DNA of 64,000 nucleotides from an uncultured Acetobacteroides sp. Its GTDB lineage: Bacteria; Bacteroidota; Bacteroidia; Bacteroidales; ZOR0009. Below the pieces are notes generated by a model. It saw only the letters and a program-made list of their open reading frames with translations, made no database searches and had not been told where the DNA came from. The position numbers and the translations under genes are program-made. This document shows positions 4,749 through 58,655 of the stretch, piece after piece (the stretch's first letter is position 1; each line of letters starts with the position of its first letter). The DNA lies in assembly GCF_963678165.1 (NCBI RefSeq), contig NZ_OY782755.1:3477996-3541995 (forward strand), written 5' to 3'.

Positions 4749-5510
4749 CCCGTTCCTACAAATCTCATTATTCAAGTGTGTTTTATATTTTAGAAGATAG
4801 ATCCGACAAAGCCAAACCGTTGCGACAACGGTGGGGTTTGTCGATCTAACTTAACTCCGCCGCCCACCCAGAACAGCAGCCATCGCTTAGAATTCAGCAC
4901 CCCAGCCCCTCCAATCCCTCGCAAAGCGCCGTAGCATCCGCCGCCTCACCTTCAGCAAAATCGCTTGCATCGTTAACCAACCGCCTTTCGCTGCAAAGTC
5001 GTAGCCTCCTCCGTTGGGATAATAGCCTTATGCATTGAGATAATAGACACCTGCCGTGAGATAATAGGCATAGTCAATGAGATAATGAATACTGGTTGTT
5101 GGATAATAGGTATAGTCCATCAGATAATGGTTAGTAGCCTTGGGATAATAAATACCTGCTTTAAGATAATGATTAGTGGCATTGGGATAATAGACATCTG
5201 CCGTGAGATAATAAGTTTAGTCAATCGGATAATAAACATATGCCATTAGATAATGAATGCCTGCCGTGAGATAATAGATACCTGCACCAGGATAATAGCC
5301 TCCAGCCCCGAGGCATTCCCGAACCGCTTACCGTGCAGCAGCTCCGCCGCACCCTGATCTCTGCAGCCCCCTGCCACCTCATCCGCCAAGGGTATCTCCC
5401 CAGCCCACCTCGCCCAAACATCCACAGCCTCACCCCAAAACCATCGTACCCCAAGCCCAATAAATAGCTTAAAAAAAGCCTCCACCTATCAAACTTTTGC
5501 CCAATGATTT
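4749..5510. other. Gene-free region holding a tandem array
   Basis: No credible gene was seen. The region holds a hairpin-like stretch near 4800-4850 (ATCCGACAAA...GTTTGTCGAT) that could end amt transcription, then the 21-base tandem array at 5018-5311. Long minus-strand frames here are open only because the repeat unit is a multiple of three; they show no protein signature. Confidence 0.6.
5018..5311. repeat. Tandem array A: 14 units of exactly 21 bp
   Basis: Each unit begins with GATAAT. Unit starts at 5018, 5039, 5060, 5081, 5102 and so on to 5291 show no slip in spacing over 14 units. The first six bases are invariant while the remaining 15 vary, with recurring endings such as CTGCCGTGA and AGTCAATGA. 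The invariant core with diverged flanks suggests an old array whose spacing is kept. It lies between amt and the IMPase operon promoter. No spacers of CRISPR type are present. Confidence 0.9.
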
Positions 5511-5518
5511 TACCTTTG
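5511..5518 (+). promoter_or_regulatory. -7 box of the IMPase operon
   Basis: TACCTTTG fits TAnnTTTG and lies 53 bases before the ATG at 5571. No clear -33 TTG was found at the normal distance. Confidence 0.5.
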
Positions 5519-5570
5519 TACCGAAAACTAGGGAAGTCACACCTTTCCAACCACAAGCAGCATACTAAAA

Positions 5571-6377
5571 ATGATAGATTACGAGAAAATCTGCCGCAAA
5601 ACCATCTCCGTTGCCGTAGAGGCAGGGCACTGGATAAAGAACGAAAGAGCCACCTTCCAGAAAGATGCGGTAGAGACCAAGGGCCTTCACGACTTCGTCT
5701 CATACGTCGACAGAGGCTCGGAAGCGCTAATCGTAAAAGAGCTGATGGGGATCATCCCCGACGCTGGTTTCATCACCGAAGAGGGAACCGTAGCCACTGA
5801 AAACAAGAAATTCCGATGGGTGATCGACCCCCTCGACGGAACCACCAACTTCATCCACGGCATCAGCCCCTTCGCCGTTAGCATCGCCCTCATGGAGAAC
5901 GAAGCTGTCGTAGTAGGCGTCGTTTACGAGGTTAGCCTCGACGAATGCTTCTACGCCTGGAAGGGCAGCCAGGCCTTCCTCAACGGAACGCCCATCGCAG
6001 TTTCCACGGCACCCACCATCCACGACAGCCTCGTGGCCACAGGGTTTCCCTACTACGACTTCTCGAGATTTCCCGAATACCTCAAGCTGCTGGAGCACCT
6101 CATGCGCAACACCCACGGCATCCGCAGGCTGGGCTCCGCCGCAACCGACCTCGCCTACGTCGCCGCAGGCCGCTTCGATGCCTTCTACGAGTACAGCCTC
6201 AATCCCTACGACGTGGCAGCAGGCTCCATCATCGTGCAGCAGGCCGGCGGCCATGTCTGCGACTTCGCCGGCGGCTCCAGCTACATCTTCGGCAGAGAAA
6301 TCGTTGCCTGCAACGCCCTGCTAAAGGATGAGTTCACGGCCATCGTCAAAGATCACCTGAATACAACCAACCGCTAG
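5571..6377 (+). CDS. Inositol monophosphatase family protein
   Basis: A 268-residue member of the Mg2+-dependent, Li+-sensitive phosphatase superfamily. The metal-binding residues are visible as EEG near 70-72 and DPLDGTTNFIHG at 86-97, with a second acidic site NPYDVAAG near residue 210. The family hydrolyses inositol-1-phosphate, 3'-phosphoadenosine phosphate or fructose bisphosphate; the exact substrate cannot be told here. It is followed after three bases by a lipid acyltransferase and then a glycosyltransferase, which suggests an operon for an envelope lipid or glycolipid, possibly inositol-containing. That last point is inference. Confidence 0.88.
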   Translation: MIDYEKICRKTISVAVEAGHWIKNERATFQKDAVETKGLHDFVSYVDRGSEALIVKELMGIIPDAGFITEEGTVATENKKFRWVIDPLDGTTNFIHGISPFAVSIALMENEAVVVGVVYEVSLDECFYAWKGSQAFLNGTPIAVSTAPTIHDSLVATGFPYYDFSRFPEYLKLLEHLMRNTHGIRRLGSAATDLAYVAAGRFDAFYEYSLNPYDVAAGSIIVQQAGGHVCDFAGGSSYIFGREIVACNALLKDEFTAIVKDHLNTTNR

Positions 6378-6380
6378 AAA

Positions 6381-7289
6381 ATGATATCGAGAATCGGCTA
6401 CTCCCTATACTACTCGCTAAGCTGGATCATCTGGGCGCTGCCGTTGCACGCCGCCTACGCCATCTCCGACACCTTCTACTTCTTCATGTACCTGGTTGTT
6501 GGGTATCGCAAAAAGGTAGTACGCCAGAACCTAACCACCTCCTTCCCCGAGAAATCGCTACAGGAGATTAAGCAGATCGAGCGAAAGTTCTACCACCACC
6601 TCTGCGACCTGTTCATCGAGTCCATGCAGCTGCTGCACATGCGCGCTGATGAGGCAAAAAAACGATTCCGGTACACCAACCCCGAGGTATATCAGCGCCT
6701 TTACGCCGAGAACAAGAACGCCATTGTCGTGCTGGGCCACTACGGCAACTGGGAGGTAAACGTAACGTTCCCCCTCTGGTCGAAATTCCAAACCCTAGCC
6801 ACCTACAAGCCGCTAAACGATAAGCATTTTAACAAGAAGATGCAGGAAGGCCGCGAACGCTTCGGAATAGAGGCCGTGCCCATGAAGCAAACGATAAAAA
6901 GGATGCTGGAGTGCGCCAAAAACGGGAAGCCAACAGCCCTTGCGCTTATTGCCGACCAGGCTCCCACCCAATCGGAAACCGACTTTTGGGTGAACTTCCT
7001 AAACCACGAAACCGGAGTTTTCCTAGGTCCCGAAAAGATCTCCAAAAAGATTAATGCTCCAGTGCTCTTCCTTCGCGTAGACAAGCCCAAGCGCGGATAC
7101 TACACGCTAACAACAACCGTCATCTGCGAGAACCCCAAGGAGACAAAGCCTGGCGAAATCACCAAAGCGCACGTAAGCATGCTCGAACAGATTATAAAAG
7201 AGCAACCCGAATACTGGCTATGGTCGCATCGACGCTGGAAAAGATCTAGGCCAAGCCAAACCGCACTACACAGCTTAAAACATGAATAG
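6381..7289 (+). CDS. Lipid A biosynthesis / lysophospholipid acyltransferase family (LpxL/HtrB-like)
   Basis: A 302-residue acyltransferase. A hydrophobic N-terminal anchor (residues 8-42) precedes the catalytic H(x4)E motif, HYGNWE at 120-125, and the conserved ADQAPT segment. Members transfer the secondary acyl chain onto lipid A or acylate related glycolipids at the inner membrane. It starts three bases after the IMPase stop and overlaps the next gene by eight bases, so the three genes are almost certainly translated from one mRNA. Confidence 0.88.
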   Translation: MISRIGYSLYYSLSWIIWALPLHAAYAISDTFYFFMYLVVGYRKKVVRQNLTTSFPEKSLQEIKQIERKFYHHLCDLFIESMQLLHMRADEAKKRFRYTNPEVYQRLYAENKNAIVVLGHYGNWEVNVTFPLWSKFQTLATYKPLNDKHFNKKMQEGRERFGIEAVPMKQTIKRMLECAKNGKPTALALIADQAPTQSETDFWVNFLNHETGVFLGPEKISKKINAPVLFLRVDKPKRGYYTLTTTVICENPKETKPGEITKAHVSMLEQIIKEQPEYWLWSHRRWKRSRPSQTALHSLKHE

Positions 7290-8307
7290 AGTTGCCGTTG
7301 TTATCCTCAACTGGAATGGCTGTTCCTTTTTGGAGCAGTTTCTTCCTTCTGTTGTTGAAAATACGCCGACAGATATAGCCGATGTTATTGTTGCCGACAA
7401 CGGATCAACCGACAATAGTTTAGCCTACTTAAAGGATCGCTTTCCCTCAATAAAAACCATCTGTTTCGACAAGAACTATGGCTTTACAGGAGGATATAAT
7501 AGGGCAATAGAAACTCTCACCCACGAGTACACCATCCTCCTAAATTCCGATGTGGAAACACCCAAGGGTTGGCTAGAACCGCTCTACGAACAGATGGAGA
7601 AGAATCCACACGTCGGAGCATGTATGCCCAAAATGCTTGCCTACGCCGACAAGCACTCCTTTGAGTATGCAGGAGCCTCAGGCGGATTCCTCGACAGGTA
7701 CGGCTACCCATTTTGCCGTGGGAGAATCCTATCCACAACAGAAATCGATAGCGAACAGTATAACGACCCCATTCCTGTTTTTTGGGCTTCTGGAGCTTGC
7801 CTTATGGTACGTACCAGCCTCTACAAGAAGTTAGGGGGGCTCGATAGCGATTTCTTTGCTCACATGGAGGAGATTGACTTCTGCTGGAGGCTACAGCATG
7901 CTGGATATAAAGTTATGGTATACCCACAAAGCCATGTGTTCCATGTTGGAGGAGGAACGCTACCCAACAACAATCCCCACAAAATGTACCTGAACTTTAG
8001 GAATAGCCTTTTAATGCTAGTAAAAAACCTTCCAGCCAAGACGCTACTAACAACCCTGTTTGTGCGAATGGTTTTAGATGGTGCAGCAGGAGTGGCATTT
8101 CTAATCCAAGGCAAGTGGGGCTTCTTTGTAGCCGTATTAAAGGCACACAGAGATTTCTATAGAATGCTAAGTAAGTTCCTTGCAAAACGCAAAGAGGTTG
8201 GAAAAAGTAAGCCAAGTGGGTTTTACAAGAAAAGTATAGTCTTTAGCCACCTAGTAAAAGGTAAAAAGACGTACAGCCTACTTGATCCATCAAAGTTCAC
8301 TGCATAA
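7282..8307 (+). CDS. Family 2 glycosyltransferase
   Basis: A 341-residue GT-A fold glycosyltransferase. The nucleotide-binding N-terminus VAVVILNWNG, the ADNGSTDNS loop near 38-46 and the DxD-type NSDVE at 88-92 are present, followed by FWASGACLMVR and EEIDFCWR, typical of rhamnosyltransferase-like GT2 enzymes. A hydrophobic stretch near residues 255-280 suggests membrane association. It overlaps the acyltransferase by eight bases. Base composition is less GC-rich than in the two genes before it. The sugar and acceptor are unknown. Confidence 0.88.
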   Translation: MNRVAVVILNWNGCSFLEQFLPSVVENTPTDIADVIVADNGSTDNSLAYLKDRFPSIKTICFDKNYGFTGGYNRAIETLTHEYTILLNSDVETPKGWLEPLYEQMEKNPHVGACMPKMLAYADKHSFEYAGASGGFLDRYGYPFCRGRILSTTEIDSEQYNDPIPVFWASGACLMVRTSLYKKLGGLDSDFFAHMEEIDFCWRLQHAGYKVMVYPQSHVFHVGGGTLPNNNPHKMYLNFRNSLLMLVKNLPAKTLLTTLFVRMVLDGAAGVAFLIQGKWGFFVAVLKAHRDFYRMLSKFLAKRKEVGKSKPSGFYKKSIVFSHLVKGKKTYSLLDPSKFTA

Positions 8308-8310
8308 AAA

Positions 8311-8330
8311 AAGTCGCCTTATGGCGACTT
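8311..8330. terminator. Bidirectional terminator between the glycosyltransferase and ppa
   Basis: Stem AAGTCGCC / GGCGACTT with loop TTAT between two convergent genes. An A run precedes it, which serves as the T run for the minus strand. Confidence 0.8.
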
Positions 8331-8335
8331 CCCTA

Positions 8336-9001
8336 TTATTTTAGCATGAGCATATCTTCTAAGTTAAATCGGTCGTTGTAATCCTCCATCGATCGTTTAA
8401 TTACCTCATAAGCCTCCTCCCTATCGTACACATGGCTAATTTCCACCCTACGCTTCTCTCCAGGGAGATCTTTGTATGTCAAGAAATAGTGCCTTAGCCT
8501 ATCTATAGCCATTGGAGGGCAATCGGTAATATCTCTATATTCGCCATATACCGCATCATTCTCCAGCACTGCAATAATCTTGTCGTCAGCATCAACTCCA
8601 TCGATCATCCGAAAACCACCAATCGGACGTGCACGAACCAAAATATCACCGTGAGCAATATCCTTTTCTGTAAGAATACAAATATCAATAGGGTCACCGT
8701 CCCCCTTTATGCCATCTCTGCTTACCTTATCAATTGTCATCTGTGCAACCTTTTTTCCCGAATAGGTTTGAGGAATAAAGCCATATAACGCAGGAACAAC
8801 ATTCGAATACTTCTGAGGGCGATCCAATCGCAAGTAACCAGAGATCTTATCAACCTCGTACTTTACGGTATCTGTCGGCACCATCTCAATAAAACATGTT
8901 ACTACCGTAGGTGCCTCTTCTCCTATTGACACGCCATGCCAAGGATGCGACTTATACCGCAATCCCATCAACTTCCCCACAATTGGATCCATAGATTTCA
9001 T
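8336..9001 (-). CDS. ppa: Inorganic pyrophosphatase (family I)
   Basis: A 221-residue soluble pyrophosphatase that splits PPi and so pulls biosynthetic reactions forward. The family I signature GDGDPIDICIL at 100-110 carries the metal-binding aspartates. The protein is longer than the roughly 175-residue E. coli enzyme because of an N-terminal extension, common in this phylum. It is 20 bases downstream of murF on the same strand, and the terminator at 8311-8330 serves as its end. Confidence 0.92.
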   Translation of the reverse strand: MKSMDPIVGKLMGLRYKSHPWHGVSIGEEAPTVVTCFIEMVPTDTVKYEVDKISGYLRLDRPQKYSNVVPALYGFIPQTYSGKKVAQMTIDKVSRDGIKGDGDPIDICILTEKDIAHGDILVRARPIGGFRMIDGVDADDKIIAVLENDAVYGEYRDITDCPPMAIDRLRHYFLTYKDLPGEKRRVEISHVYDREEAYEVIKRSMEDYNDRFNLEDMLMLK

Positions 9002-9021
9002 ATGTTCACAAATTAATCTGC

Positions 9022-10323
9022 TTATAGTAAAGATAAGGCATTTTCCAGCTTAATGCCACGCGACCCTTTTACCAGAACAAGCGAGTTTTCTATTGGATTC
9101 GCTTTTAAGTACTCGATAAGTTCGTTTGAATTTGTAAATAGAATTGCACTTGTACTACCAGCAACTGACACAAATTCAGGACCAACAAGGAGCAAATTCT
9201 CCACCCCCAACTGTTCCGCAAGGTTAACTATTTTTACATGCTCGCTTGCTGAGGCCTCACCCAATTCAAGCATATCGCCTAGAATTGCAATCTTGCTGCC
9301 AACATTAAACTTCGTAAAGTTTGATATTGCGGCTTCCATACTTGTAGGGTTTGCATTGTAGCAATCTACAATAACCAAATTCTTGGAGGTACGCATCAGC
9401 TGCGACCTGTTATTTGTTGGAGTATACTCATTCAAAGCCTTTTTAATATGATCGACAGAGATTCTGAAATGAAGACCAATCGTTACTGCTGCTAGCACAT
9501 TATCGGCATTGTAATCACCTACAAGTTGCGTCTCAAGCGTAATCCCTTCCATTTCTCCTTTATCAACTCGCATTCTAAGAAATGGATGATCAATATCTTT
9601 TGTTAAGATCTCTACCCCCATTTTGCTCATACCATAAGCTACCGTACTAGCAACTTTACGTTCCTGAGCCATTTGAACTAGATAAGAATTGTCGGTGTTT
9701 AAAAAGATCGTGCCATTTACGCTATTTATAAAGTCGTAAAGTTCCCCTTTCGTCCTTTTTACTCCTTCAAAAGAACCGAATCCTTCAAGATGAGCCATTC
9801 CAACGTTAGTAATCAAACCCAAATCAGGCATGGCAATTGATGTCAACTCATCAATATCTAATGGATGATTGGCACCCAATTCAATCACAGCAACTTGAGC
9901 ATCAGAAGGTATTGAGAGAATTGTGAGCGGCACTCCTATCTGATTATTTAAGTTGCCCTTGGTGGCAGCAACCTTATACTTACTGCTTAGCACTGCAACA
10001 ATCAACTCTTTAGTCGTTGTTTTTCCATTAGTGCCAGTTAATCCAATAAAAGGAATCTTAAGCGTACGACGATACATTCTGGCAAGTTCCTGAAGTGCGA
10101 ACAAACCATTTTCAACGTAAACAATTCCGTCACCTTCAATTGATCTGTCATCAACAACTGCTAGAGCAGCTCCCATTTCAAGAGCCTTTTTTGCAAAATT
10201 ATTTCCATCAAAGTTACCGCCCTTTAGGGCAATGAAAATATCGCCAGTCGTTATTTGTCGAGTATCAGTCGTAACTCGTGGATTTTTTTGATACTGCTGA
10301 AAAATTATATCAAGTGCTTCCAT
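9022..10323 (-). CDS. murF: UDP-N-acetylmuramoyl-tripeptide--D-alanyl-D-alanine ligase MurF
   Basis: A 433-residue Mur ligase that adds D-Ala-D-Ala to the UDP-MurNAc tripeptide in the cytoplasm. The ATP-binding loop GLTGTNGKTTTKE is at 94-106; the central ELGANHPLDID segment and the C-terminal VLVKGSRGIKLE segment fit MurF rather than MurC, D or E. It lies between gldJ (upstream, separated by a terminator) and ppa. Linkage of murF with gldJ is, from memory, common in the phylum. Confidence 0.94.
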   Translation of the reverse strand: MEALDIIFQQYQKNPRVTTDTRQITTGDIFIALKGGNFDGNNFAKKALEMGAALAVVDDRSIEGDGIVYVENGLFALQELARMYRRTLKIPFIGLTGTNGKTTTKELIVAVLSSKYKVAATKGNLNNQIGVPLTILSIPSDAQVAVIELGANHPLDIDELTSIAMPDLGLITNVGMAHLEGFGSFEGVKRTKGELYDFINSVNGTIFLNTDNSYLVQMAQERKVASTVAYGMSKMGVEILTKDIDHPFLRMRVDKGEMEGITLETQLVGDYNADNVLAAVTIGLHFRISVDHIKKALNEYTPTNNRSQLMRTSKNLVIVDCYNANPTSMEAAISNFTKFNVGSKIAILGDMLELGEASASEHVKIVNLAEQLGVENLLLVGPEFVSVAGSTSAILFTNSNELIEYLKANPIENSLVLVKGSRGIKLENALSLL

Positions 10324-10336
10324 TGGGTACTATTAT

Positions 10337-10368
10337 AAAAAAAGAAAACCTCAAATTGAGGCTTTCTT
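10337..10368 (-). terminator. Terminator after gldJ
   Basis: Short stem CCTCA / TGAGG within the longer dyad AGAAAACCTC...GAGGCTTTCT; the A run at 10338-10345 reads as a T run on the minus strand. Confidence 0.65.
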
Positions 10369-12735: not shown

Positions 12736-12880
12736 GCTACCACCGGAATGTGTTTTTCATAAATAAAAGGAATACCCGCGTTAACAACCCTAGAAATCAA
12801 GAAAAAAGCACATGAAGCCTAACTCTTGAAAAGCAGTGTAAGAACAAGTGAACGGTAACATGCCGAATGATGATCCGGAC

Positions 12881-12950
12881 TTCTCCCATTATTGTTGAGT
12901 TACCCTAAAGTTCCCTTTAAGAGACTTTGGATGAATACAGCATTAACTAA
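12881..12950 (+). repeat. Decayed copy of dispersed element type 2
   Basis: The stretch CCCATTATTGTTGAGTTACC followed by AAAGTTCCCTTTAAGAGACT aligns position by position with CCCATGATGGTTGAGCTGCC and GAAGTCCCCTTTAGGGGATT at 56880-56922, followed in both by GGATGAATACAGCA or GGATTCAATGCA. The similarity is too long for chance, and the palindromic core has lost symmetry here. Confidence 0.6.
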
Positions 12951-13209
12951 ATCGTGAAAGCAATTTTTTTGACTGTCCTCCCTTCGGCTTATTGTAGAAC
13001 TGCCAACAATAACAAATCACCCTCCATTCGTGGCATTTCACCTGCTAGTGCCATGATTCACTAATGATTTAGGCCCTTAAAAAACACATTGAAAGATCGG
13101 TTTGTGCCTTAAAATCTTGTGCAAACATCCGAAGATAAGTTGATTTCTAAAAAAATCTTGTGCGTAGCACGTTTCGGGTGCAAATTAAATTCAACAGATG
13201 GCTGAATTT

Positions 13210-13534
13210 AATTCAGTAACCTACTGCGATAAATTCAGTAGGCGACTAAGCTTAATTCAGCAACTTACTGCGATGAATTCAGTAAGCGACTGAGCTTAAT
13301 TCAGCAACCTACTTCGATGAATTCAGTAAGCTACTAAGCTGAATTCAGTAACCTACTGCGATAAATTCAGTAAGCTACTAAGCTGAATTCAGCAACTTAC
13401 TTCGATGAATTCAGTAAGCTACTAAGCTGAATTCAGTAACTTACTTCGATGAATTCAGTAAGCTACTAAGCTTAATTCAGTAACCTACTGCGATGAATTC
13501 AGTAAGCTACTGAGCTTAATTCAGCAACTTACTG
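13210..13534. repeat. Tandem array B: about 15 units of 22 bp in alternating pairs
   Basis: Units start with AATTCAG at 13210, 13232, 13254, 13276 and every 22 bases to 13518. Two unit types alternate, one continuing TAACCTACTNCGAT and the other TAAGCTACTAAGCT, so the true repeat is 44 bp. The junction between unit types often forms the palindrome CTGAATTCAG. Few substitutions occur, so this array looks younger than array A. Confidence 0.92.
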
Positions 13535-14311
13535 AATTAAATTAGGACACAAACGCCAGCAAATAAACATATAAACAACACATTACACGTAAAAGAACAT
13601 CACGATATGGCCAGCAACAGCCCCGTCGAGCATACTAGTCTCATATAGCCTAAATGCAAGTTGCAAATACCCTAAATTACTCATCCTGCATAATTGTTTT
13701 TGAGCAACCACAGGGCTTCTTATAAAACCATCAGAGTTCTATTGCAAGTTTTCTCCATAACATAACCATATACGAGACATCACCAAGTAAAAACGCATCA
13801 ACACAAATAAAAGAACGTCGTCATCCTATCACACTAACAAATTGGAACATAACGAGCAACCGAAGACTGCACCTGCACGCCCTATAGACATTAATATTTC
13901 TTCGTTTTTAATGTGCTATGCACGAAAACGCCACTATACGTCACAATGCCTCTTTGCTAGCATATAAATGCATTCTGGCATAGCGACCAATAGCGTACGC
14001 AGAAGGGTGGTTTTTATCCTTAAGCATTTACTTCGGGGCTGCAGAAAACCGCTATCGCCCCCCACAGCTCCTATTGGTTGGGCCTATTATGGTATATCAA
14101 AGAGGTGAATATAGCATTTTTATCAGCTATAAAAGCGAAACGAGCATGAATGCAGGAATTCACCAAAGTAGCTGAAAGTTTGCCATACGAGTTGCATGTG
14201 ACCATGAGGAAACAATTTCTTTTACATGAAATCCATAAACAAACAAGGGAGAGGTTTCTAATTCCAATTAATTTGATTTAATTTTACCCCATTAATATAA
14301 AAAAGAAAATA

Positions 14312-15427
14312 ATGCATAAAAAGTTACGGCCTTTTTTTCTATTCGGCTCTTTTTTGATTTCTGCATCGAACCTATTTGGACAAGATAACCAGATAAGCGT
14401 TGGTGCTCCGTTTTTAACCATTACACCAGACGCAAGAGCTGCAGGCTATGGAGATCAAGGTGCCGCAACAAGCCCCGACAACAACTCTCAATACTGGAAT
14501 CCTGCCAAATACGCTTTTGCAAATGGCAAATACGGAGGATCTTACTCGTTCACCCCATGGCTTAAAAACATTACTGACGATATAAGTTTACACTACCTGT
14601 CGGGCTATTATAAAGTAGATGACAAACAAACCGTAAGCGCTTCCTTACGTTATTTTTCTTTAGGGAATATTACATTCACAGGTAATGACGGGAATATCAC
14701 TACCGATTTTAAGCCAAATGAATTTTCTATTGATGTTGCCTATTCGCGAAAACTAGCAGAATCCCTATCTGCCTCTATTGCATTCCGCTACTTACGATCA
14801 GATTTAACGGGAAACAATGCCATTCCAGATTTAAATATTGACACAAAAGCCGCATCTGCATTTGCTGCAGATATTGCTCTTTACTATCAAAAAGTAGTTG
14901 GTCAAAATGAGTACGCTTTAGGCGTTAACATTTCTAACATTGGTCCAAAAGTTTCCTACAGCAACGTAGGAGAAAAATCCTTCATCCCTACAAATTTAAG
15001 AGTTGGGGTTCGCTACACCCGCTGTGTTGGTGAGAAAAGTAAAGTATCAGGCTTGCTTGAAACATCTAAGCTGCTTGTCCCAACCCCAGATATCGAGAAC
15101 GGAGTTGACAAAAACGCCAATAAAGGAGTACTCGATGGCATTTTCTCTTCGTTTGGTGATGCCCCAGGAGGATTTAAGGAAGAACTCAAAGAATTTGTTT
15201 ACTCAATCGGTGCAGAGTATAGCTATGCAAATACTATAGCCCTTCGCGCAGGATACTTTCATGAGGCAGAAACGAAAGGCAATAGAAAGTTCTACACCTT
15301 TGGCTTCGGAATTAACTATAAGATGTTCATTATTGATGCCTCATACCTAGCACCATCTAATGGAGGTCGAAACAACCCTCTTGATAATACTTTCAGATTT
15401 TCATTGGGATTTCAAATACCAAAGTAG
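14312..15427 (+). CDS. porV: PorV (LptO)-type outer membrane beta-barrel, copy 1
   Basis: A 371-residue outer membrane protein with a signal peptide (about residues 1-23, ending LFGQ). It has the PorV signature APFLTITPDARAAGYGDQGA and NNSQYWNPAKYAF, then many amphipathic beta strands. PorV shuttles T9SS substrates from the translocon to the PorU sortase complex at the cell surface. A second, similar gene follows 228 bases downstream. A terminator ends this gene, so the two are separate units. Confidence 0.88.
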   Translation: MHKKLRPFFLFGSFLISASNLFGQDNQISVGAPFLTITPDARAAGYGDQGAATSPDNNSQYWNPAKYAFANGKYGGSYSFTPWLKNITDDISLHYLSGYYKVDDKQTVSASLRYFSLGNITFTGNDGNITTDFKPNEFSIDVAYSRKLAESLSASIAFRYLRSDLTGNNAIPDLNIDTKAASAFAADIALYYQKVVGQNEYALGVNISNIGPKVSYSNVGEKSFIPTNLRVGVRYTRCVGEKSKVSGLLETSKLLVPTPDIENGVDKNANKGVLDGIFSSFGDAPGGFKEELKEFVYSIGAEYSYANTIALRAGYFHEAETKGNRKFYTFGFGINYKMFIIDASYLAPSNGGRNNPLDNTFRFSLGFQIPK

Positions 15428-15655: not shown

Positions 15656-16861
15656 ATGTTAAGGAAGTTTGCTGTTGGCGTGTGTGTTATCGGGGGAATT
15701 TTATTAACAAACATGGGGTTTTCTCAATCGGATATAATTGGACGAGAGTTCAATCCGATTAGAGTTGCTGCACCGTTTTTGACCATAACGCCAGACTCCA
15801 GAGCGGCAGGTTGTGGGGATCAGGGAGTAGCAAGTGGTGCCGACAATAACTCGCAGTACTGGAATCCTGCAAAGTACATTTTTGCGGATCCTAAGATGGG
15901 GGTGTCTTTTTCGTACACCCCGTGGCTCAGAAATATCATAAGTGGAATAAGCCTAAGCAACCTTGCCGGCTACTACAAAATTGACAACAACCAATCAGTA
16001 AGCGCCTCTCTAAGGTACTTCTCGCTTGGTGAAGTAGAGTTCACCGATAATTCGAATACCTTACAGAAACAGTTTAAGCCAAACGAATTTGCACTTGACG
16101 CTGCTTATACCCGTCGGTTAAATGACATTCTATCATCGGCAATTGGCTTTAGATATATTAGTTCCAACCTTACAGGAGGCTACGCCGAGAATGCTGTGGA
16201 AACAAAAAAAGCGAGTTCCTTTGCTGCAGACATATCTCTTTACCTGGAAAAATCGGTACGAATGGGGTATAACGATGCTGAAGTTGCATTCGGGATGTCG
16301 ATATCTAACATTGGCTCAAAAATTTCATACAGCGACAACGAAAATGCCAAGTCGTTTTTACCAACAACCTTACGCATAGGGGGCCGATACTCAATAATCG
16401 CCAACCGGACGCATAAAATATCAGGCCTCGTTGAAACTTCGAAGTTACTTGTTCCTACACCCAAATACGATGCACAAGGGAATAATCTAAATGCGAATAA
16501 AAGCGTTGTGAGCAGCATTTTCAGCTCGTTTGGAGATGCTCCTGGTGGAATGAAAGAGGAGTTGAACGAGTTTTCCTTCTCGCTAGGGGCCGAATACACC
16601 TTCAACAACACGTTTAGCCTACGAGTTGGCACATTCAACGAATCAAAAAACAAGGGAAACCGAAAGTTCTTTACAGTTGGCGGAGGGCTAAAGTATAACC
16701 TTTTCGTATTGGATGTTGCCTACCTAGTGGCAACATCCAATAGCGCAAACAACCCTCTAGCAAACACCTTTAGAATAACAATTGGAACTGAACTGGGACA
16801 AGACAAATACAGTAGCTCCCGCGGAAGAGGTCGATCACGAGGAGGAAGAAGGCATCGCTAG
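15656..16861 (+). CDS. PorV-type outer membrane beta-barrel, copy 2
   Basis: A 401-residue paralogue of the preceding protein, sharing APFLTITPDSRAAGCGDQG, NNSQYWNPAKYIF, the SVSASLRYFSLG strand, FSSFGDAPGG and the final strands. It differs by an N-terminal insertion after the signal peptide, an insertion near residue 200 and a C-terminal tail SRGRGRSRGGRRHR that the first copy lacks. Both keep the PorV signature, so both could serve the type IX system, perhaps for different substrates. Whether the Arg-rich tail is periplasmic or surface-exposed is unknown. Confidence 0.85.
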   Translation: MLRKFAVGVCVIGGILLTNMGFSQSDIIGREFNPIRVAAPFLTITPDSRAAGCGDQGVASGADNNSQYWNPAKYIFADPKMGVSFSYTPWLRNIISGISLSNLAGYYKIDNNQSVSASLRYFSLGEVEFTDNSNTLQKQFKPNEFALDAAYTRRLNDILSSAIGFRYISSNLTGGYAENAVETKKASSFAADISLYLEKSVRMGYNDAEVAFGMSISNIGSKISYSDNENAKSFLPTTLRIGGRYSIIANRTHKISGLVETSKLLVPTPKYDAQGNNLNANKSVVSSIFSSFGDAPGGMKEELNEFSFSLGAEYTFNNTFSLRVGTFNESKNKGNRKFFTVGGGLKYNLFVLDVAYLVATSNSANNPLANTFRITIGTELGQDKYSSSRGRGRSRGGRRHR

Positions 16862-26752: not shown

Positions 26753-26959
26753 ATGAAACTCCTGATCGAAATAAAGGATAGCAAGGTTGACTTCATCCTC
26801 GAACTCCTAAAAAACTTTTCGTTCGTAAAGGTTAGCCCGCTGACAAAAGAAAAGGCGGAGCAAATGGAAGACCTCAAGGATTCGGTAGACTACGTGAACG
26901 AGGCCAAGGCAGGCTACAAGAAAAGCCGAAGCGCCAAAGATTTTCTCGATGAGCTATAG
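26753..26959 (+). CDS. Putative antitoxin of a type II toxin-antitoxin pair
   Basis: A 68-residue acidic-basic protein with a short beta/helical N-terminus (MKLLIEIKDSKVDFILELL) and a C-terminal tail AKAGYKKSRSAKDFLDEL of the kind that wraps around RelE-type toxins. No helix-turn-helix domain was recognised. It overlaps the toxin gene by 11 bases, the usual coupling in such pairs. The identification rests mainly on the neighbour. Confidence 0.75.
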   Translation: MKLLIEIKDSKVDFILELLKNFSFVKVSPLTKEKAEQMEDLKDSVDYVNEAKAGYKKSRSAKDFLDEL

Positions 26960-27278
26960 CATTTCGACAACTCCTACATTCGAAAAGCAGGCAAAGAAGC
27001 TTGCCAAAAAGTACCCATCACTCAAATCCGACCTCCTCTCGCTTATTGAAAAACTAGAGGAAAACCCGACTCAGGGAGTTGAGCTAATCCCCAATTGCTA
27101 TAAGGTAAGAATCGCAATTGCCTCTAAGCATAAAGGAAAATCGGGAGGTGCCCGAGTTATCACCTACGTACATATCGAAAACCAGCAAGTCTACCTTCTT
27201 TCGATATTCGACAAATCGGAAAAAGAAGCAATTTCTGATGCAGAAATTAGGGATATCCTAGGTTGCATTGAATTGTAG
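26949..27278 (+). CDS. RelE/ParE-type toxin
   Basis: A 109-residue RelE-superfamily protein: FEKQAKKLAKKYPSLKSDL, the ENPTQG loop, CYKVRIAIASKHKGKSGGAR and a final YLLSIFDKSEKE strand. RelE toxins cut mRNA at the ribosome, ParE toxins poison gyrase; the KSGGARVI core is nearer the RelE/HigB side, but this is not decisive. Its stop codon TAG lies within the dispersed palindrome at 27274-27303, so the repeat provides the end of the gene. Confidence 0.82.
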   Translation: MSYSISTTPTFEKQAKKLAKKYPSLKSDLLSLIEKLEENPTQGVELIPNCYKVRIAIASKHKGKSGGARVITYVHIENQQVYLLSIFDKSEKEAISDAEIRDILGCIEL

Positions 27279-27303: not shown

Positions 27304-27360
27304 CCGTTTATTCCCGACCATTTTCACACATCCCCCGAACATTTAAAGGCAGCTTTCGCA

Positions 27361-27549
27361 ATTATGCATGCATAATTGGCCGCTGCAGATTTGCGACAAC
27401 GAATTATGCATGCATAATAGGGCGCTGCAGCTCTGCGGCAACGAAATATGTATGCATATTGGGCTGCTGCAAACCTGCGGCAGCCCAATATGTACGCATA
27501 CAGGGCTGCCGGCGATGGCGCGCAGGGTTGTATGTGCGCATGCTGGGCC
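27361..27549. repeat. Tandem array C: four and a half units of 42 bp
   Basis: Units start at 27361, 27403, 27445, 27487 and (partial) 27529. The first two units carry the perfect palindrome ATTATGCATGCATAAT followed by a CGCTGCAG segment; units drift progressively toward GC-rich versions. It lies between the toxin gene and the SDR gene. The surrounding 340 bases hold nothing else of note. Confidence 0.85.
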
Positions 27550-44725: not shown

Positions 44726-45385
44726 GGGGCCAATACAAACAAATTTACCTTGCTAAGCACGGACAGTAGCCCCATAGCAGGCAAGCAAGGGATGGTAGGC
44801 AGCAAGCTGGCCCCATAATGCTGCCTTCGCATCGGTTATACTCACCCAACGGATGGCAAAAGGCACTCTTATCGCACGACGACCCTCCCTTTTCACGAGC
44901 TGACCCTCCCTCAGCACGTGAAATACCACACATTTCACGCGCTGACCCTCCCCCTGTACGTGAAATGCCACCCTTCTCACGCGCTGACCCTCCCTCTGCA
45001 CGTAAAATACCACACATTTCACGCGCTGACCCTCCCTCTGCACGTGAAATACCACCCTTTTCATGCGCTGACCCTCCCTCCTCGCATAAAATACCACACA
45101 TTTCACGCGCTGACCCTCCCCCAACACGCAAAATACCACACATTTCACGCGCTGACCCTCCCTCGGCACATAATTCCCCTCCCCCTACGCATAAAACACC
45201 ACCCCTTTTTCTCAATTCATGTTATGCATCGCGCTGCATGAGGGATGCTTCTAGCGCTCTACAGGCACGCAGAAAAAAAACATACAGCTATTCTGAACCT
45301 TTTTGGCAGGCATAGCGTTCTATACTTAAACAAGCCATCAAGAGTTAATTAACGACAGTATTAACCATTTAGAAAATTAGTAGTA
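44726..45385. other. Gene-free region holding tandem array D
   Basis: 660 bases; the array at 44881-45195 takes up about half. Long frames on both strands (for example 44818-45315 plus and 44753-45169 minus) exist only because 42 is a multiple of three. No terminator was seen right after 44725. Confidence 0.6.
44881..45195. repeat. Tandem array D: 42-bp units with one 21-bp half unit
   Basis: GACCCTCCC recurs at 44881, 44902, 44944, 44986, 45028, 45070, 45112 and 45154: one interval of 21 then six of 42. Units carry the inverted pair GTGAAAT / ATTTCAC. In the first five full units a CACATTTC form alternates with a CCCTTYTC form, giving an 84-bp higher order. Confidence 0.88.
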
Positions 45386-54570: not shown

Positions 54571-54941
54571 GGCTTTAACTAATTTGATATTGCTAAGGTA
54601 ACGAATCAATTGGTTTTAACAATTTGATGGGTGCTGGATTTTACCTGTTTTACCCTTAGAGATGCCATCGTAACCTTTAGGCTAAGGATAGTTTTACGTT
54701 TGATGCTGACAGAAAACCCACCCCTGCCCTCCCGCCTAAGCGGGAGGATAAACAGATTCAATCATGCACAGGTACTTGCTATTAATCCGTTTCTTTCGAA
54801 ATAGTTTTTGGTACAATTCTTAGCCTCGGCGATGAGAGATGCCCTTGCAGCATTCGCCAGCGCCATCATGCCAAACAAAATTATGAACACCCCTCGATAT
54901 CTCAGATTTTTTAGTAGCTTTATTGTAAAATTGAACTGATT
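54571..54941. other. Intergenic region with a solo repeat arm
   Basis: 371 bases between divergent genes. It holds a solo arm of dispersed element type 1 at 54714-54770 (ACCCACCCCTGCCCTCCCGC, AGCGGGAGG, ATTCAATCATGCAC). A weak -7 box (TAGCTTTA, 54914-54921) precedes bcp. Nothing else was recognised. Confidence 0.5.
54714..54770. repeat. Solo arm of dispersed element type 1
   Basis: ACCCACCCCTGCCCTCCCGC followed by CTAAGCGGGAGGATAA and GATTCAATCATGCAC matches the right arm of the elements at 43509-43670 and 61194-61355. Confidence 0.65.
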
Positions 54942-55406
54942 ATGGCAACGTTACAGATTGGCGATAAAGCCCCTGATTTTAAGGGCATCGATCAAAACGG
55001 CAAGGCGGTTACCCTTGCCGACTTTGCCGGAAAGCGGCTAATCCTCTACTTCTACCCCAAGGACAGCACCCCCGGCTGCACCGACGAGGCCTGCAGCCTC
55101 CGCGATGGATGGGGCGAGCTCAGGGCGCAGGGATTCGAGGTGCTGGGCGTAAGCGCCGACTCGGAGGCTTCGCACGTCAAGTTCATCGAAAAGCATAGCC
55201 TGCCCTTCAACCTGATTGCCGACACCGAAAAATCGATCCTCGAGGCCTACAACGCCTGGGGCGAAAAGAGCCTATACGGCAAGAAGTACATGGGCATCAT
55301 CCGTAAAACCTACGTGATCGGCGCCAGCGGCATCATCGAAAACATCTTCGAAAAGGTGAAGGTGAAGAGCCATGCCCAGCAAATCTTGGACGCATATAAA
55401 AAATAA
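54942..55406 (+). CDS. bcp: Thioredoxin-dependent thiol peroxidase (BCP/PrxQ)
   Basis: A 154-residue peroxiredoxin. The peroxidatic Cys 46 and resolving Cys 51 are in STPGCTDEACSLR, the C(x4)C spacing of BCP/PrxQ. It reduces hydroperoxides using thioredoxin in the cytosol. It starts well after a divergent gene and is followed after 12 bases by recA, so oxidative defence and DNA repair may share a transcript. Confidence 0.95.
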   Translation: MATLQIGDKAPDFKGIDQNGKAVTLADFAGKRLILYFYPKDSTPGCTDEACSLRDGWGELRAQGFEVLGVSADSEASHVKFIEKHSLPFNLIADTEKSILEAYNAWGEKSLYGKKYMGIIRKTYVIGASGIIENIFEKVKVKSHAQQILDAYKK

Positions 55407-55418
55407 CAAACAGATAGA

Positions 55419-56429
55419 ATGGCCACAGCAAAAGCAGAAATCAACAAGGACAAGCTAAAGGCGCTACAGGCAACGCTCGACAAGATCGAGAAGGACTTTG
55501 GCAAAGGTGCAATTATGAAGATGGGCGACAAGCCTACCATGGACGTGCCCACCATCTCGTCGGGCTCCATCAGCCTAGATGTTGCCCTGGGCATCGGCGG
55601 GTACCCACGCGGCAGGGTTATCGAGATCTACGGCCCAGAATCGTCGGGTAAGACCACGCTGGCCATCCACGCCATTGCCGAGGCGCAAAAGACGGGAGGC
55701 ATTGCCGCCATCATCGATGCCGAGCACGCCTTCGACCGCTTCTACGCCGAGAAACTGGGCGTTGATGTGGAGACGCTGCTGATCTCGCAGCCCGACAACG
55801 GCGAGCAGGCGCTCGAAATTGCCGACCACCTGATCCGCTCGGGTGCCATCGACATCGTGGTGATCGACTCGGTTGCCGCGCTTACCCCCAAGGCCGAAAT
55901 CGAGGGCGACATGGGCGAGAACAAGGTTGGCCTTCAGGCCCGCCTGATGTCGCAGGCGCTGCGCAAGCTCACCGCCACCATCAGCAAGACCAACACCACC
56001 TGCATCTTCATCAACCAGCTGCGCGAGAAGATCGGCGTGATGTTCGGCAACCCCGAAACCACCACCGGCGGTAACGCGCTGAAGTTCTACGCTTCGGTGC
56101 GCATCGATATCCGCAAGAGCACGCAGATTAAGGACGGCGAGGAGGCCACCGGCACCCGCGCCAAGGTGAAGATCATCAAAAATAAGATGGCGCCACCGTT
56201 CCGCAAGGCCGAGTTCGACATCATGTACGGCGAGGGGATCTCGAAGATTGGCGAGATCATCGACCTAGGCGTGGAGTACGAGATCGTGAAAAAGAGCGGC
56301 TCGTGGTTCAGCTACGGCGACACCAAGCTAGGCCAGGGGCGCGATGCCGTGAAGCAGCTGCTGCAGGACAACCCTGAGCTGGCCGAGGAGCTAGAGGGCA
56401 AGATCCGCGAGGCGCTGGCCGCCAAGTAG
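55419..56429 (+). CDS. recA: Recombinase RecA
   Basis: A 336-residue RecA: Walker [12 protein letters not shown], Walker [11 protein letters not shown], the DNA-binding loops [20 protein letters not shown] and [20 protein letters not shown]. RecA pairs homologous DNA and triggers LexA/S24 self-cleavage. It lies 12 bases after bcp. No copy of the 19-bp dyad seen near 47.5 kb was found upstream, so it may not belong to that regulon. The S24 repressor and its target pair are about 6-8 kb away. Confidence 0.97.
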
Positions 56430-56482
56430 GGTCACGGATTGAACGGATTTACGCTGATCTTTTAAAGATCGGAATTGCATAA

Positions 56483-56520
56483 GGGGAGGCTACCTGACAA
56501 CGGGTGGCCTCCCTTCGTTT
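56483..56520 (+). terminator. Terminator after recA
   Basis: Stem GGGAGGCTACC / GGGTGGCCTCCC with T-rich tail. Confidence 0.8.
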
Positions 56521-56608
56521 TTGATCACAGATTTTGAGGATTACTCGGATTGCACGGAAGCTCTTTCTAGGAGCGTTGCGGGTTTCCTTAAGGCCTATTT
56601 AAGGCGAC

Positions 56609-56635
56609 TGCTCCCGCCTTAGCGGGAGGAATACG
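56609..56635. repeat. Short solo repeat arm
   Basis: CTCCCGCCTTAGCGGGAG palindrome, like the core of the arm at 54714-54770. Confidence 0.45.
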
Positions 56636-56786
56636 CTCGGTGCAGCCTTTGCGTATGAGAGATTTCATGTGAAAGTAATTGTCTTTTTAATGGTCACATG
56701 CTGCTCGCATCACAGTCTTTCATCAACGTTGGTGAATACTGCATTCATGGTCGTTTCGCTTTTAGAATTAATGCTTAGGAACGGAT

Positions 56787-56946
56787 GGAAAGCTAAGCCG
56801 TATTCACCCCCACCCCCCCTAAAGGGGGCTACGGCGCAGCCCGTATCGCAACCAGAAGCCGAATAGGAGTTCGAGATTCCCCATGATGGTTGAGCTGCCG
56901 CGAAGTCCCCTTTAGGGGATTTAGGGGTGGATTCAATGCATTGCAT
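56787..56946. repeat. Two-armed dispersed element type 2
   Basis: Left arm CACCCCCACCCCCCCTAAAG and GGGGGC, right arm GTCCCCTTTAGGGGATTTAG and GGGTGGATTCAATGCA, inverted relative to each other; about 160 bp with no open frame. A decayed copy of its right part is at 12881-12950. Confidence 0.65.
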
Positions 56947-57037
56947 ATCCTAAAAGCTATACCCCTGCTTTGCGTATAGCATCATCATCGGTAATACCAT
57001 CTTCCAAATTGCCAATCGCCCACCCCAAAACAAACAA

Positions 57038-57066
57038 ATGGCGCAACCCTTGCCGAGCTGCGCCAT
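57038..57066 (-). terminator. Terminator of the DUF6261 gene
   Basis: Stem ATGGCGCA / TGCGCCAT; on the minus strand it is followed by TTTGTTTGTTTTG. Confidence 0.7.
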
Positions 57067-57107
57067 CGTGTGCCGTACATGTTAACCTCCAAAGCCGATC
57101 GCCTTGG

Positions 57108-57863
57108 CTACTTCTTATCCTTATCCTTGTTTTTCTCCTCCTCTTCCTTCTTCTTGTTCTCGCGGATGGTGGCGCGGCTCTTTAGGGTCTCGGCGTAGGG
57201 TTCGATCACCGCGTTGATCTGCTCGATGGCGGCGGCCACCTCGGGCTCGTAGTCCGAAACCGAGTCGAGATACTGGAACACCTGGCTCAGCGAGGCGCTC
57301 AGCCTGCGGGTACCCTCGACGCTGGTGAGGTTGCCGGTAACCGTGCTGGCCTGTATCTTATCCCAGCAGCGCTTAACCTCGGCCGCCTCGGGCACTAGCC
57401 TTGCCACCACCTCGGTTGCCCCAATGGTGGCGATGTCGGCCGTTAGCTCGGGCGATGCCTTAATGTCGCCAACGAGTAGGGTGATGGCCTCGACCTCAAC
57501 CGGAATCCGAAAATTCTGCATGTTGAAGCCCCTCCGGCGGATAGCGGTAAGCACCCGTTCGCCAGCACCGCTCACCTTCTCGTCGCGCCGAAGCGTTGCC
57601 GTGGTGGCCACCCCTTTAAGCTCCTGCACCGAGCTGTCGCAGATGTCGTCCTTGTCGTGCAGTTCCTGGGTATCTTCGGGTTTAGCCTTAGAGCCAATGG
57701 CCGCATCGAACTCCACCTTCGACACCTTTACCGTATCCACCATTTTTTGGGGAACGCGCTTACCGGTGACAAGCACCTCTAGCCGTTCGATTACCGATAC
57801 TGCCAGCGAACCGAGTTCCTTAACCAGCAGCTTCTTCAAATTAATAGACTTAATTCTAACCAT
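57108..57863 (-). CDS. DUF6261-like protein
   Basis: A 251-residue, mostly helical protein with no signal peptide: RIKSINLKKLLVKELGSLAV at the start, EVEAITLLVGDIKASPELTA in the middle, and a very charged C-terminal tail of alternating Lys and Glu (NKKKEEEEKNKDKDKK). It resembles the Bacteroidota family DUF6261, in which I know no function. The assignment is from memory of family style and is moderate. It is isolated: a terminator on one side and an array on the other. Confidence 0.65.
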   Translation of the reverse strand: MVRIKSINLKKLLVKELGSLAVSVIERLEVLVTGKRVPQKMVDTVKVSKVEFDAAIGSKAKPEDTQELHDKDDICDSSVQELKGVATTATLRRDEKVSGAGERVLTAIRRRGFNMQNFRIPVEVEAITLLVGDIKASPELTADIATIGATEVVARLVPEAAEVKRCWDKIQASTVTGNLTSVEGTRRLSASLSQVFQYLDSVSDYEPEVAAAIEQINAVIEPYAETLKSRATIRENKKKEEEEKNKDKDKK

Positions 57864-58655
57864 AACAAAATGTTTTTAGATGTTTATAAATACCGCACGG
57901 TGGCTGAATTGGCTGTTGACATGCCCCGCGTACGGATGCGTTGTGTTGGCTTTGGAGGCCTGCCCTAAAGTTGGTAATTATATTTTAAATTAACAATTCA
58001 CCATCAGTGCAAATCTCATTAATCGCTACATACCTTTGAATTATGACATATGAAGTTTTGTTTTATTAATAAAGTAACGCTACAGAACACTAACAAACAT
58101 GCCACACAAGCGCTCCCTACCCCTACCGAAAGCCCCCCAAACCTCCATAAGCAGGGGAAAGGGGGTGGATGACCACCTAAACGCTCTGAAAAATGGAAAG
58201 GAAGCGAGGGGTGACCACTTAAGCGCTCTAAGAAATGGAAAGGAAGCGGGGGATGACCACTCAATCGCTCCAAAAAATGGAAAGGAAGCGGGGGGTGACC
58301 ACTTAAGCGCTCTGAAAAATGCAAAGGAAGCGAGGGGTGACCACTCAAACGCTCCGAAAAATGCAAAGGAAGCGGGGGGTGACCACTTAAGCGCTCTGAA
58401 AAATGGAAAGGAAGCGGGGGGTGACCACTCAATCGCTCTAAAAATGCCCAACCGCTGGTTATCGAGGATGCTCCACCAACATTTTTCTATAACGCTGCTT
58501 AACGGTGGCCGTTTATTGCTACTTTAGAAGCCTATTTATAATCGTATATCTACCTGTAAGAATAGCAAACGTGATTCCCCTTTCGATGTGGGATGGTAGG
58601 TTACGGTTATCGAAGAATCGTCGGACATATTTAAACATGTAAAAGAAAAAGAATT
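57864..58655. other. Gene-free region holding tandem array E
   Basis: 792 bases between divergent genes, with the array at 58171-58445. Frames of 120-140 codons on both strands across the array have repeating 14-residue units but substitutions between units are mostly amino-acid changing, which argues against a protein. Confidence 0.6.
58171..58445. repeat. Tandem array E: seven units of 42 bp, alternating
   Basis: GACCAC recurs at 58171, 58213, 58255, 58297, 58339, 58381 and 58423, always 42 bases. From the second unit on, two forms alternate, one with CTTAAGCGCTCT, one with CTCAAWCGCTCY, giving an 84-bp order. The last unit is broken after about 23 bases. Confidence 0.9.

What the first reader, a model, noticed from the sequence alone, without database searches (positions are those of the whole stretch)
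5018..58445. Five unrelated intergenic arrays share a 21/22/42-bp unit length
Arrays at 5018-5311 (14 x 21), 13210-13534 (15 x 22, alternating to 44), 27361-27549 (4.5 x 42), 44881-45195 (42, with one 21-bp half unit) and 58171-58445 (7 x 42) have no sequence in common but the same length quantum, about two or four turns of B-DNA. I counted the unit starts directly and found no slip within any array. Several have alternating unit types, so expansion seems to go by pairs. All five lie 5' of a plus-strand gene. A shared length with no shared sequence points to a mechanism or binding protein that measures helical distance, not sequence. I know of no described element of this kind.
Basis: partly seen in the sequence, partly recalled or inferred. 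Interest (0 to 1): 0.78.

Follow-up and report, generated by a model that had tools for sequence, protein, structure and literature searches.

The report
Bacterial repeats sharing length, not sequence
This bacterium and its two closest held relatives carry many repeat arrays between their genes that differ in sequence but are mostly built from steps of about 21 base pairs (two turns of the double helix); a similar puzzle has been described in other bacteria, and its cause is still unknown.

Summary
In 59 evenly spaced 20-kb stretches of the 4.3-Mb chromosome, 77 of 89 tandem arrays have a fundamental lag of 20-22 or 41-43 bp. In three congeneric genomes 117 of 131 well-periodic arrays lie on this ladder, none at 31/32 or 51-53 bp. 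Thin samples of 18 order-level relatives and 40 named Bacteroidota loci show almost nothing like it. The arrays lie between genes, show no coding signature and change length far less than sequence. Matching gaps can hold unrelated arrays of the same unit length, and one array appears to have been copied to a new gap without its flanks. Units of 42 bp without a 21-bp sequence repeat still tend to carry dyads 21 bp apart. 'No described element' is wrong: Subirana and Messeguer reported constant-size, variable-sequence bacterial repeats (20-21 and 52 nt) and noted the two helical turns (PMC8161180). Best guess: a geometry-reading DNA-binding factor, not identified; a mutational ruler is nearly as likely. 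Even spacing along the chromosome and a 5'-of-gene rule were tested and failed.

The parts
5018..5311 (.). Array 1: 14 units of 21 bp, GATAAT constant, rest highly variable, between amt and an inositol monophosphatase gene
   Evidence: GATAAT at 5018-5291, 13 of 13 steps = 21; TRF 5002-5285, period 42/21; flanking genes; matching gap in G002 is 97 bp without an array; no dyad excess (z +1.0, +1.5)
13208..13534 (.). Array 2: 15 units of 22 bp alternating to 44, between ygbB and porV
   Evidence: AATTCAG 14 of 14 steps = 22; TRF period 44; relatives at G000:C1:2534588 and 1399944; no array in the matching gap of G002 and G001
27360..27509 (.). Array 3: 42-bp units (palindromic half plus second dyad half), decaying towards about 27549, between a relE-like gene and a short-chain dehydrogenase gene
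   Evidence: TRF; self-reverse-complement identity 0.76, p 0.005; related array in G002 with a swapped half module
44874..45195 (.). Array 4: 42-bp units with one 21-bp half step, after an M23 peptidase gene
   Evidence: GACCCTCCC steps 21 then 42 x 6; TRF 44874-45173; ORFs through it have no Pfam match; no tight synteny with G002
58170..58446 (.). Array 5: 42-bp units, 7 copies, in a divergent gap (DUF6261 gene on -, wHTH gene on +)
   Evidence: GACCAC 6 of 6 steps = 42; TRF; matching gap in G002 holds a 42-bp array of another sequence (z 2.2, 9 of 200 shuffles as high)

Best explanation
The five arrays are samples of a population of non-coding, dispersing minisatellites of this genus, built from a module of about 21 bp (two helical turns), laid head-to-tail (21, 42, 63, 84) or in alternating orientation (42 = module plus inverted module). 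SHOWN in the sampled sequence: the length ladder, its presence in three congeners and near absence in thin samples of other Bacteroidota, intergenic location, no coding signature, a deficit of length changes, replacement of the sequence at matching places, and one case best read as dispersal of an array without flanks. INFERRED: what is kept is a geometry (similar or dyad features recurring every two turns on one face of the helix), because a low-specificity, probably dimeric DNA-binding or nucleoid-associated protein assembles cooperatively on it. Mutations that change the letters are tolerated and spread within an array; mutations that break the two-turn step are lost. No such protein was identified.
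For: Ladder: 77 of 89, 117 of 131. Two congeners have it; 18 order relatives gave 2 arrays in 262 kb, both 23 bp. Length changes per substitution 0.037 in 113 arrays against 0.144 in orthologous non-coding DNA. Half-unit dyad correlation 0.093 (null -0.014, sd 0.020; 0 of 200) in 58 arrays without 21-bp sequence periodicity, only at 20.5-21.5 bp; 12 further arrays 0.137 (null -0.009, sd 0.04; 0 of 200). Halves of 94 units of 40-44 bp: direct 26, inverted 20, both 15, neither 33. Palindromic half replaced by another palindrome in exact 42-bp phase in G002. One gap with unrelated arrays of 42, 42 and 44 bp in the three species.
Against: No protein found and no binding data. Dyad excess at p<=0.05 only in 20% of 113 arrays and 8 of 23 further ones; window arrays 1 and 5 show none; 33 of 94 units show no relation of halves. 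The dyad-position and inverted-half results are two views of one symmetry, not independent. Units of 41, 43, 22 and 44 bp are off strict 10.5-bp phase. No 10.5-bp-specific signal. No short motif shared by the arrays. Even spacing, which a nucleoid role might suggest, failed.
Confidence: 0.38

Rival explanations
1. Mutational ruler: a quirk of replication or repair in this genus makes and expands tandem duplications in steps of about 21 bp (for example slippage over a two-turn polymerase or clamp footprint). The arrays have no function; the length is the signature of the machine.
For: Outside strong arrays, repeated 9-mers in non-coding DNA peak at 21 bp (41) and 42 bp (30) against a mean of 4.7 per lag (decayed arrays would do the same). 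Arrays change by whole units; edges are more diverged than cores, 68 of 96. The trait was seen in this genus only.
Against: Does not predict dyads 21 bp apart in units without 21-bp sequence repeats or palindrome-for-palindrome replacement. The same lag spectrum has a larger peak at 14 bp (67), which no 21-bp step explains.
Confidence: 0.3
2. Inheritance: the arrays descend by copying and drift from one or a few ancestral 21-bp arrays. Unit length is kept passively because expansion copies it, and sequence is lost by drift.
For: Relatedness grades off: 42 of 82 sampled G000 arrays have a relative at score >=24 (35 pairs seen; 4 and 6 expected under two nulls, of 3321). Array 2 dispersed without flanks; 14 pairs in 7 further families share no flank hit outside the array.
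Against: At the local rate of 0.144 length changes per substitution, a 42-bp unit would gain about six length changes while being saturated with substitutions (my arithmetic), yet units cluster at 41-43. It does not explain the shortage of length changes inside arrays.
Confidence: 0.14
3. RNA function: the arrays are transcribed and act as chains of about 21-nt hairpins (small RNAs or a protein sponge).
For: Dyads are enriched. Subirana and Messeguer report that 52-nt arrays of B. coagulans are transcribed (PMC8161180).
Against: No strand bias relative to transcription in 45 arrays in tandem gaps (GC skew p 0.09, AT skew p 0.20). No Rfam match on the arrays. In one gap the arrays of two species lie between two hairpins that look like terminators of convergent genes (by eye).
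Confidence: 0.12
4. REP/BIME-like elements moved by a RAYT (Y1) transposase.
For: Intergenic, dispersed, partly palindromic; G000 has 7 and G002 3 Y1_Tnp matches.
Against: G001, 99% complete, has arrays (9 in 186 kb) but no Y1_Tnp match at E <= 0.001. No common sequence among the arrays.
Confidence: 0.04
5. Coding repeats of 7 or 14 amino acids.
For: 21 and 42 are multiples of three, and ORFs run through arrays 4 and 5.
Against: Units of 41, 43, 22 and 44 bp and 20/21 mixtures. No codon-position bias: 32 arrays, largest class 0.49 against 0.47 expected, 1 of 32 at p<=0.05. 8 ORFs through arrays have no Pfam match above cut-off. Sequence replaced between congeners.
Confidence: 0.02

Closest known systems
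Constant-size, variable-sequence tandem repeats of bacteria (Subirana and Messeguer; J Bacteriol 2020 not held; Int J Mol Sci 2021, PMC8161180, parts 1-4 of 5 read)
   Same: Many non-coding arrays per genome, one size class (20-21 nt), several families of different sequence, several members per family, partial conservation between related genomes, two helical turns remarked, function unknown.
   Different: Here most units are composites of 41-44 bp (direct or inverted doubles of about 21), no short motif is shared by the arrays of the genome, and matching gaps of congeners hold unrelated arrays of the same size. The parts I read give 20-21 and 52 nt and no 42-bp class.
Transposed satellite families of Leptospira interrogans and Methanocella conradii (PMC6749651, passages read)
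   Same: Non-coding tandem arrays of one family at several places in a genome.
   Different: No common unit length across unrelated families is reported in the passages seen.
REP/BIME elements with RAYT transposases (recalled; PMC3733652 seen as search listing only)
   Same: Intergenic, palindromic, dispersed, 20-40 bp.
   Different: Unrelated sequences in fixed 21-bp register; no Y1 transposase match in G001.
CRISPR arrays (recalled)
   Same: Constant part plus variable part per unit; regular spacing.
   Different: Variable parts recur within an array and are not unique spacers; unit 21/42 bp; scores of arrays in the sample.

Membership tests
Subirana-Messeguer constant-size tandem repeats | One repeat size per genome with variable sequence | tested here: met
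   77 of 89 and 117 of 131 arrays on the 21-bp ladder; 85 units give 12 families of 2-4 and 58 singletons at the threshold used
Subirana-Messeguer constant-size tandem repeats | Size class 20-23 nt (or 52 nt) | tested here: inconclusive
   Fundamental 21-22 in 56 of 131 arrays; 41-43 in 58 of 131, a size not in the parts read of PMC8161180
[quoted passage not shown]
   82 of 85 in gaps, 1 in an ORF, 2 at stretch edges, after ORFs lying mainly in arrays were set aside; no codon-position bias
Subirana-Messeguer constant-size tandem repeats | Short characteristic sequence shared by most arrays of a species (reported for several species) | tested here: not met
   Best 6-mer in 9 of 82 arrays, equal to the largest value in 100 shuffles
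Subirana-Messeguer constant-size tandem repeats | Copy number and presence vary between strains | not testable with these tools
   Only one genome per species is held; between species presence and sequence vary
REP/BIME with RAYT | RAYT (Y1_Tnp) gene in the genome | tested here: not met
   No PF01797 match in G001 at E <= 0.001, which has the arrays; present in G000 and G002
REP/BIME with RAYT | Common palindromic sequence | tested here: not met
   No shared motif; 58 of 85 units unrelated to any other in the sample at the threshold used
CRISPR | Unique spacers between identical repeats, with cas genes | tested here: not met
   Spacer: variable parts recur within arrays. The cas part was not searched.

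The most novel reading that the evidence does not exclude
A sequence-blind genomic element: what is inherited is a geometry (a similar or dyad-symmetric feature every two helical turns, in phase over roughly 100-450 bp), kept by a factor of this genus that measures length, while the letters are replaced in place and arrays copy themselves into new gaps. The palindrome-for-palindrome swap in exact phase in G002 and dyads 21 bp apart in units without a 21-bp sequence repeat would be its signature.
Probability: 0.28. Interest if true: 0.85.

Novelty: new variant of a known kind. Interest (0 to 1): 0.6.

Why it matters
Why some bacteria keep repeat length but not repeat sequence was called enigmatic by those who described it (PMC8161180). 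This genus is a strong case, about 65 ladder arrays per Mb in the sample, with three species in which presence, absence, replacement and dispersal can be read gap by gap, and a structural clue that can be tested (dyads at two-turn spacing). If a length-reading protein exists, it would be a nucleoid or mobility factor that recognises geometry; if not, the ladder records a step size of replication or repair.

Tried and rejected
Even spacing along the chromosome: counts per 20-kb stretch looked underdispersed (mean 1.32, variance 0.73), and interval CVs in the 244-kb G000 and 256-kb G002 regions were low (p 0.0008-0.0065). The test written down before fetching gave, in 400 kb of G000, CV 0.895 against 0.93, p 0.47; G001 0.997, p 0.7. 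Dropped.

Orientation or 5'-of-gene rule: 45 tandem, 20 convergent, 17 divergent against 272/64/88 background gaps; convergent excess p 0.05 only. Dropped.

Terminator role: terminator-like sites in 7 of 20 convergent array gaps against 14 of 68 others; tandem 5 of 41 against 43 of 266; divergent 1 of 16 against 5 of 82. No clear pattern.

Intrinsic curvature: the 10.5-bp harmonic is not specifically raised (W 1.14 but 7-bp 1.31; AA/TT 1.36 but 7-bp 1.52; purine 1.56 but 7-bp 1.48).

Coding, RAYT/REP and Rfam families: see rivals. A first count of length changes with TRF consensus units (0.085 per substitution) was inflated by consensus errors and replaced. The expectation that nearly all units are hairpins (notebook) was not borne out.

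Limits: TRF rows with score below 100 (80) were dropped, as were arrays off the ladder in the 'ladder array' sets (85 of 94 kept; 113 kept). The order relatives were sampled by 20 loci on contigs 1-2 of 18 genomes (262 kb, some loci under 6 kb). The background for length changes is one species pair.
Full report
OBSERVATION. The five arrays are real and in register. GATAAT in array 1 recurs 13 of 13 times at 21 bp although the rest of the unit is highly variable; AATTCAG in array 2 recurs 14 of 14 times at 22; arrays 3-5 are at 42, array 4 with one 21-bp half step. TRF finds them with periods 42/21, 44, 42, 42 and 42. The window lies in a single-contig genome of 4.30 Mb (G000; window = C1:3477996-3541995). 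The host is a Bacteroidota member by its genes: porV lies next to array 2, and the 40 named loci with a PorV relative match at 41-51% identity in their best segment. I did not identify the genus.

GENOME-WIDE TEST. In 59 evenly spaced 20-kb stretches (1.18 Mb) TRF gave 89 arrays outside the window (score >=100, period 10-300). The fundamental lag by autocorrelation was 20-22 bp in 41 and 41-43 bp in 36, together 77 of 89; a few of these rest on weak autocorrelation. One six-base-block shuffle gave 0 arrays. Over three congeneric genomes (1.85 Mb, score >=80, autocorrelation >=0.55) there are 131 arrays: 21:50, 22:6, 41:18, 42:37, 43:3, 82/83:3, so 117 of 131; the rest are 9, 11, 12, 14, 54, 87, 96 and 98. 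None lie at 31/32 or 51-53. The 96- and 98-bp ones are tandem tRNA genes, and the one 54-bp array I checked lies inside a pseudouridine synthase gene. By extrapolation G000 holds roughly 280 ladder arrays. Arrays of all kinds number 17 in 200 kb of G002 and 9 in 186 kb of G001; 18 order relatives gave 2 in 262 kb (both 23 bp, G020), and 40 named Bacteroidota loci 2 in 485 kb (TRF periods 33 and 81; the 33-bp one has its first autocorrelation lag at 21). Those outside samples are thin.

NON-CODING, NO PLACE RULE. Of 85 ladder arrays, 82 lay in gaps between predicted ORFs, 1 in an ORF and 2 at stretch edges; ORFs lying mainly in arrays had been set aside first. The 82 were 45 tandem, 20 convergent and 17 divergent; background gaps of at least 100 bp were 272/64/88. 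So the 5'-of-gene position in the window is not general. Substitutions between units show no codon-position bias (32 arrays), 8 ORFs through arrays have no Pfam match above cut-off, and Rfam finds only four tRNAs in the window.

LENGTH IS KEPT MORE THAN SEQUENCE. Aligning 113 arrays of the three genomes cyclically to their own consensus gave 3342 substitutions and 125 length-change events (0.037 each); non-coding DNA aligned between G000 and G002 by blastn gave 1330 and 192 (0.144), about four times as many. 70 of 113 arrays had no length change. Array edges are more diverged than cores (0.143 against 0.107; 68 of 96), a pattern expected of turnover in place.

GAP BY GAP. I compared 244 kb of G000 with contigs of G002 and G001. 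Of 14 ladder arrays there, against G002: 4 have a related array in the matching interval (consensus similarity z 17, 14, 7 and 3.7; two of these intervals are tight, two are loosely bounded at 3.8-5.9 kb); 2 face an array of the same 42-bp size that is unrelated or barely related (z 0.7 and 2.2); 6 have no array by TRF (G002 interval 15, 97, 114, 220, 510 and 1098 bp); 2 have no tight synteny. One gap holds unrelated arrays in the three species (42, 42 and 44 bp; z 0.7, -0.8, -1.2). At another, G000 and G002 share a family while G001 has an unrelated 42-bp array. In the 114-bp interval two degenerate copies of the G000 unit can be seen by eye, so 'no array' can mean contraction as well as absence.

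DISPERSAL. Array 2 has two relatives in G000 (84%, 82%) and one in G002, none in G001; among 18 order relatives there is one 32-bp match, in G020. The G002 copy is orthologous to the G000 copy at C1:2534588: sequence on both sides aligns at 72-79%. The gap beside porV, where array 2 sits, has no array in G002 or G001; in G002 it holds a thioredoxin gene instead, so it is not a clean empty site. The simplest reading is that the array, without flanks, was copied into the porV gap after the species split; loss in both relatives is the alternative. In 14 pairs from seven other families no match lies outside the array within 1.5 kb, although in one pair the match runs 162 bp beyond the TRF boundary. 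How arrays move is unknown; Y1 transposases are not needed, since G001 has none at E <= 0.001.

STRUCTURE. Units contain more dyad symmetry than shuffled units: tiled folding, mean z -1.17 over 214 strands of 107 arrays; best stem 4.91 against 3.87, 23 of 113 at p<=0.05 against 4 of 113 flank controls; 8 of 23 arrays not in that first set, some of them seen earlier in the synteny work. Window arrays 1 and 5 show none. The informative result is position. In 58 arrays whose 42-bp unit has no 21-bp sequence periodicity (half-unit identity 0.26, chance level), the dyad profile correlates with itself at half a unit: 0.093, null -0.014, sd 0.020, 0 of 200, and only at lags of 20.5-21.5 bp; 12 further arrays repeat it: 0.137, null -0.009, sd 0.04, 0 of 200. 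Arms were kept short so that the same base pairs are not counted at both axes. A cyclic unit that matches its own reverse complement has two axes half a unit apart, so this is another view of 'the second 21 bp is the inverted first': among 94 units of 40-44 bp the halves are directly similar in 26, inverted in 20, both in 15, neither in 33. Of the 58 units, 18 are inverted at p<=0.05, against 7 of 58 flank controls, which is itself above the expected 5%. Array 3 shows it plainly: in its G002 counterpart the half ATTATGCATACATAA gives way, in 42-bp phase, to AATCCTCATAGGGATT, another palindrome.

MECHANISM. Three readings fit the ladder: a factor that reads geometry, a mutational ruler, and inheritance from a few ancestors. 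Inheritance alone conflicts with the local rate of length change. The ruler explains the 21/42 excess outside arrays but not dyads at 21 bp in units without 21-bp sequence repeats, nor palindrome-for-palindrome replacement. I therefore favour, at 0.38, a low-specificity dimeric DNA-binding factor assembling on a two-turn lattice, with the ruler at 0.30. The factor is pure inference. Strict helical phase is not the rule: 41, 43, 22 and 44 bp are tolerated, while 31/32 and 52/53, no worse in phase, are absent; the module itself must be about 21 bp.

KNOWN? Subirana and Messeguer (PMC8161180; I read parts 1-4 of 5; their 2020 paper is not held) describe bacterial arrays of constant size (20-21 or 52 nt; 20-23 nt in many groups) and variable sequence, note that 20-21 nt is two turns of the helix, and propose nucleoid proteins or small RNAs. 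In outline this is the same phenomenon. It differs in the composite 41-44-bp units and in lacking a short motif common to the genome's arrays (best 6-mer in 9 of 82, no more than shuffles reach). Because that feature was tested and not met, I call it a variant and not a plain member. Eight literature searches listed no report that I recognised as describing this group or a 42-bp class; most subscription papers are not in that library.

NEGATIVES. Even spacing failed a test written down in advance, half of which could be run; curvature, terminator, strand-skew and orientation tests were negative.

Noticed in passing
window 14312-15427 and 15656-16861: Two adjacent porV-like genes; both congeners also have two PorV matches side by side.
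   Followed up: partly
L152 8231-8298 and 9647-9736 (G020): An order-level relative has two related 23-bp arrays 1.3 kb apart: a possible third size step outside the genus. Its genome also holds the only match, 32 bp, to array 2 among the 18 order relatives.
   Followed up: no
non-coding sequence of the G000 sample: Repeated 9-mers at 14-bp spacing (67) exceed even the 21-bp peak (41) outside strong arrays; a second, shorter repeat class.
   Followed up: no
L097 8625-10390: A 1.77-kb array of 87-bp units (436-bp higher order), off the ladder.
   Followed up: no
L081 16472-17541: A 493-bp tandem duplication, each copy holding its own 42-bp array.
   Followed up: no
G000:C1 about 3561846-3562415 and the matching G002 gap: An array lies between two terminator-like hairpins of convergent genes; same layout and another array sequence in G002 (by eye).
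   Followed up: partly
window 12736-14311 against L117 1347-1679 (G002): Where the window has 1.5 kb without an ORF of 100 aa or more, G002 has a thioredoxin gene between ygbB and porV.
   Followed up: partly
L089 11652-11922; L115 7395-7666; L161 967-2461: Tandem tRNA genes: three tRNA-Lys, three tRNA-Val, and three tRNA-Leu followed by three tRNA-Val.
   Followed up: yes
window 26949-27278: A RelE-like toxin gene directly before array 3.
   Followed up: no
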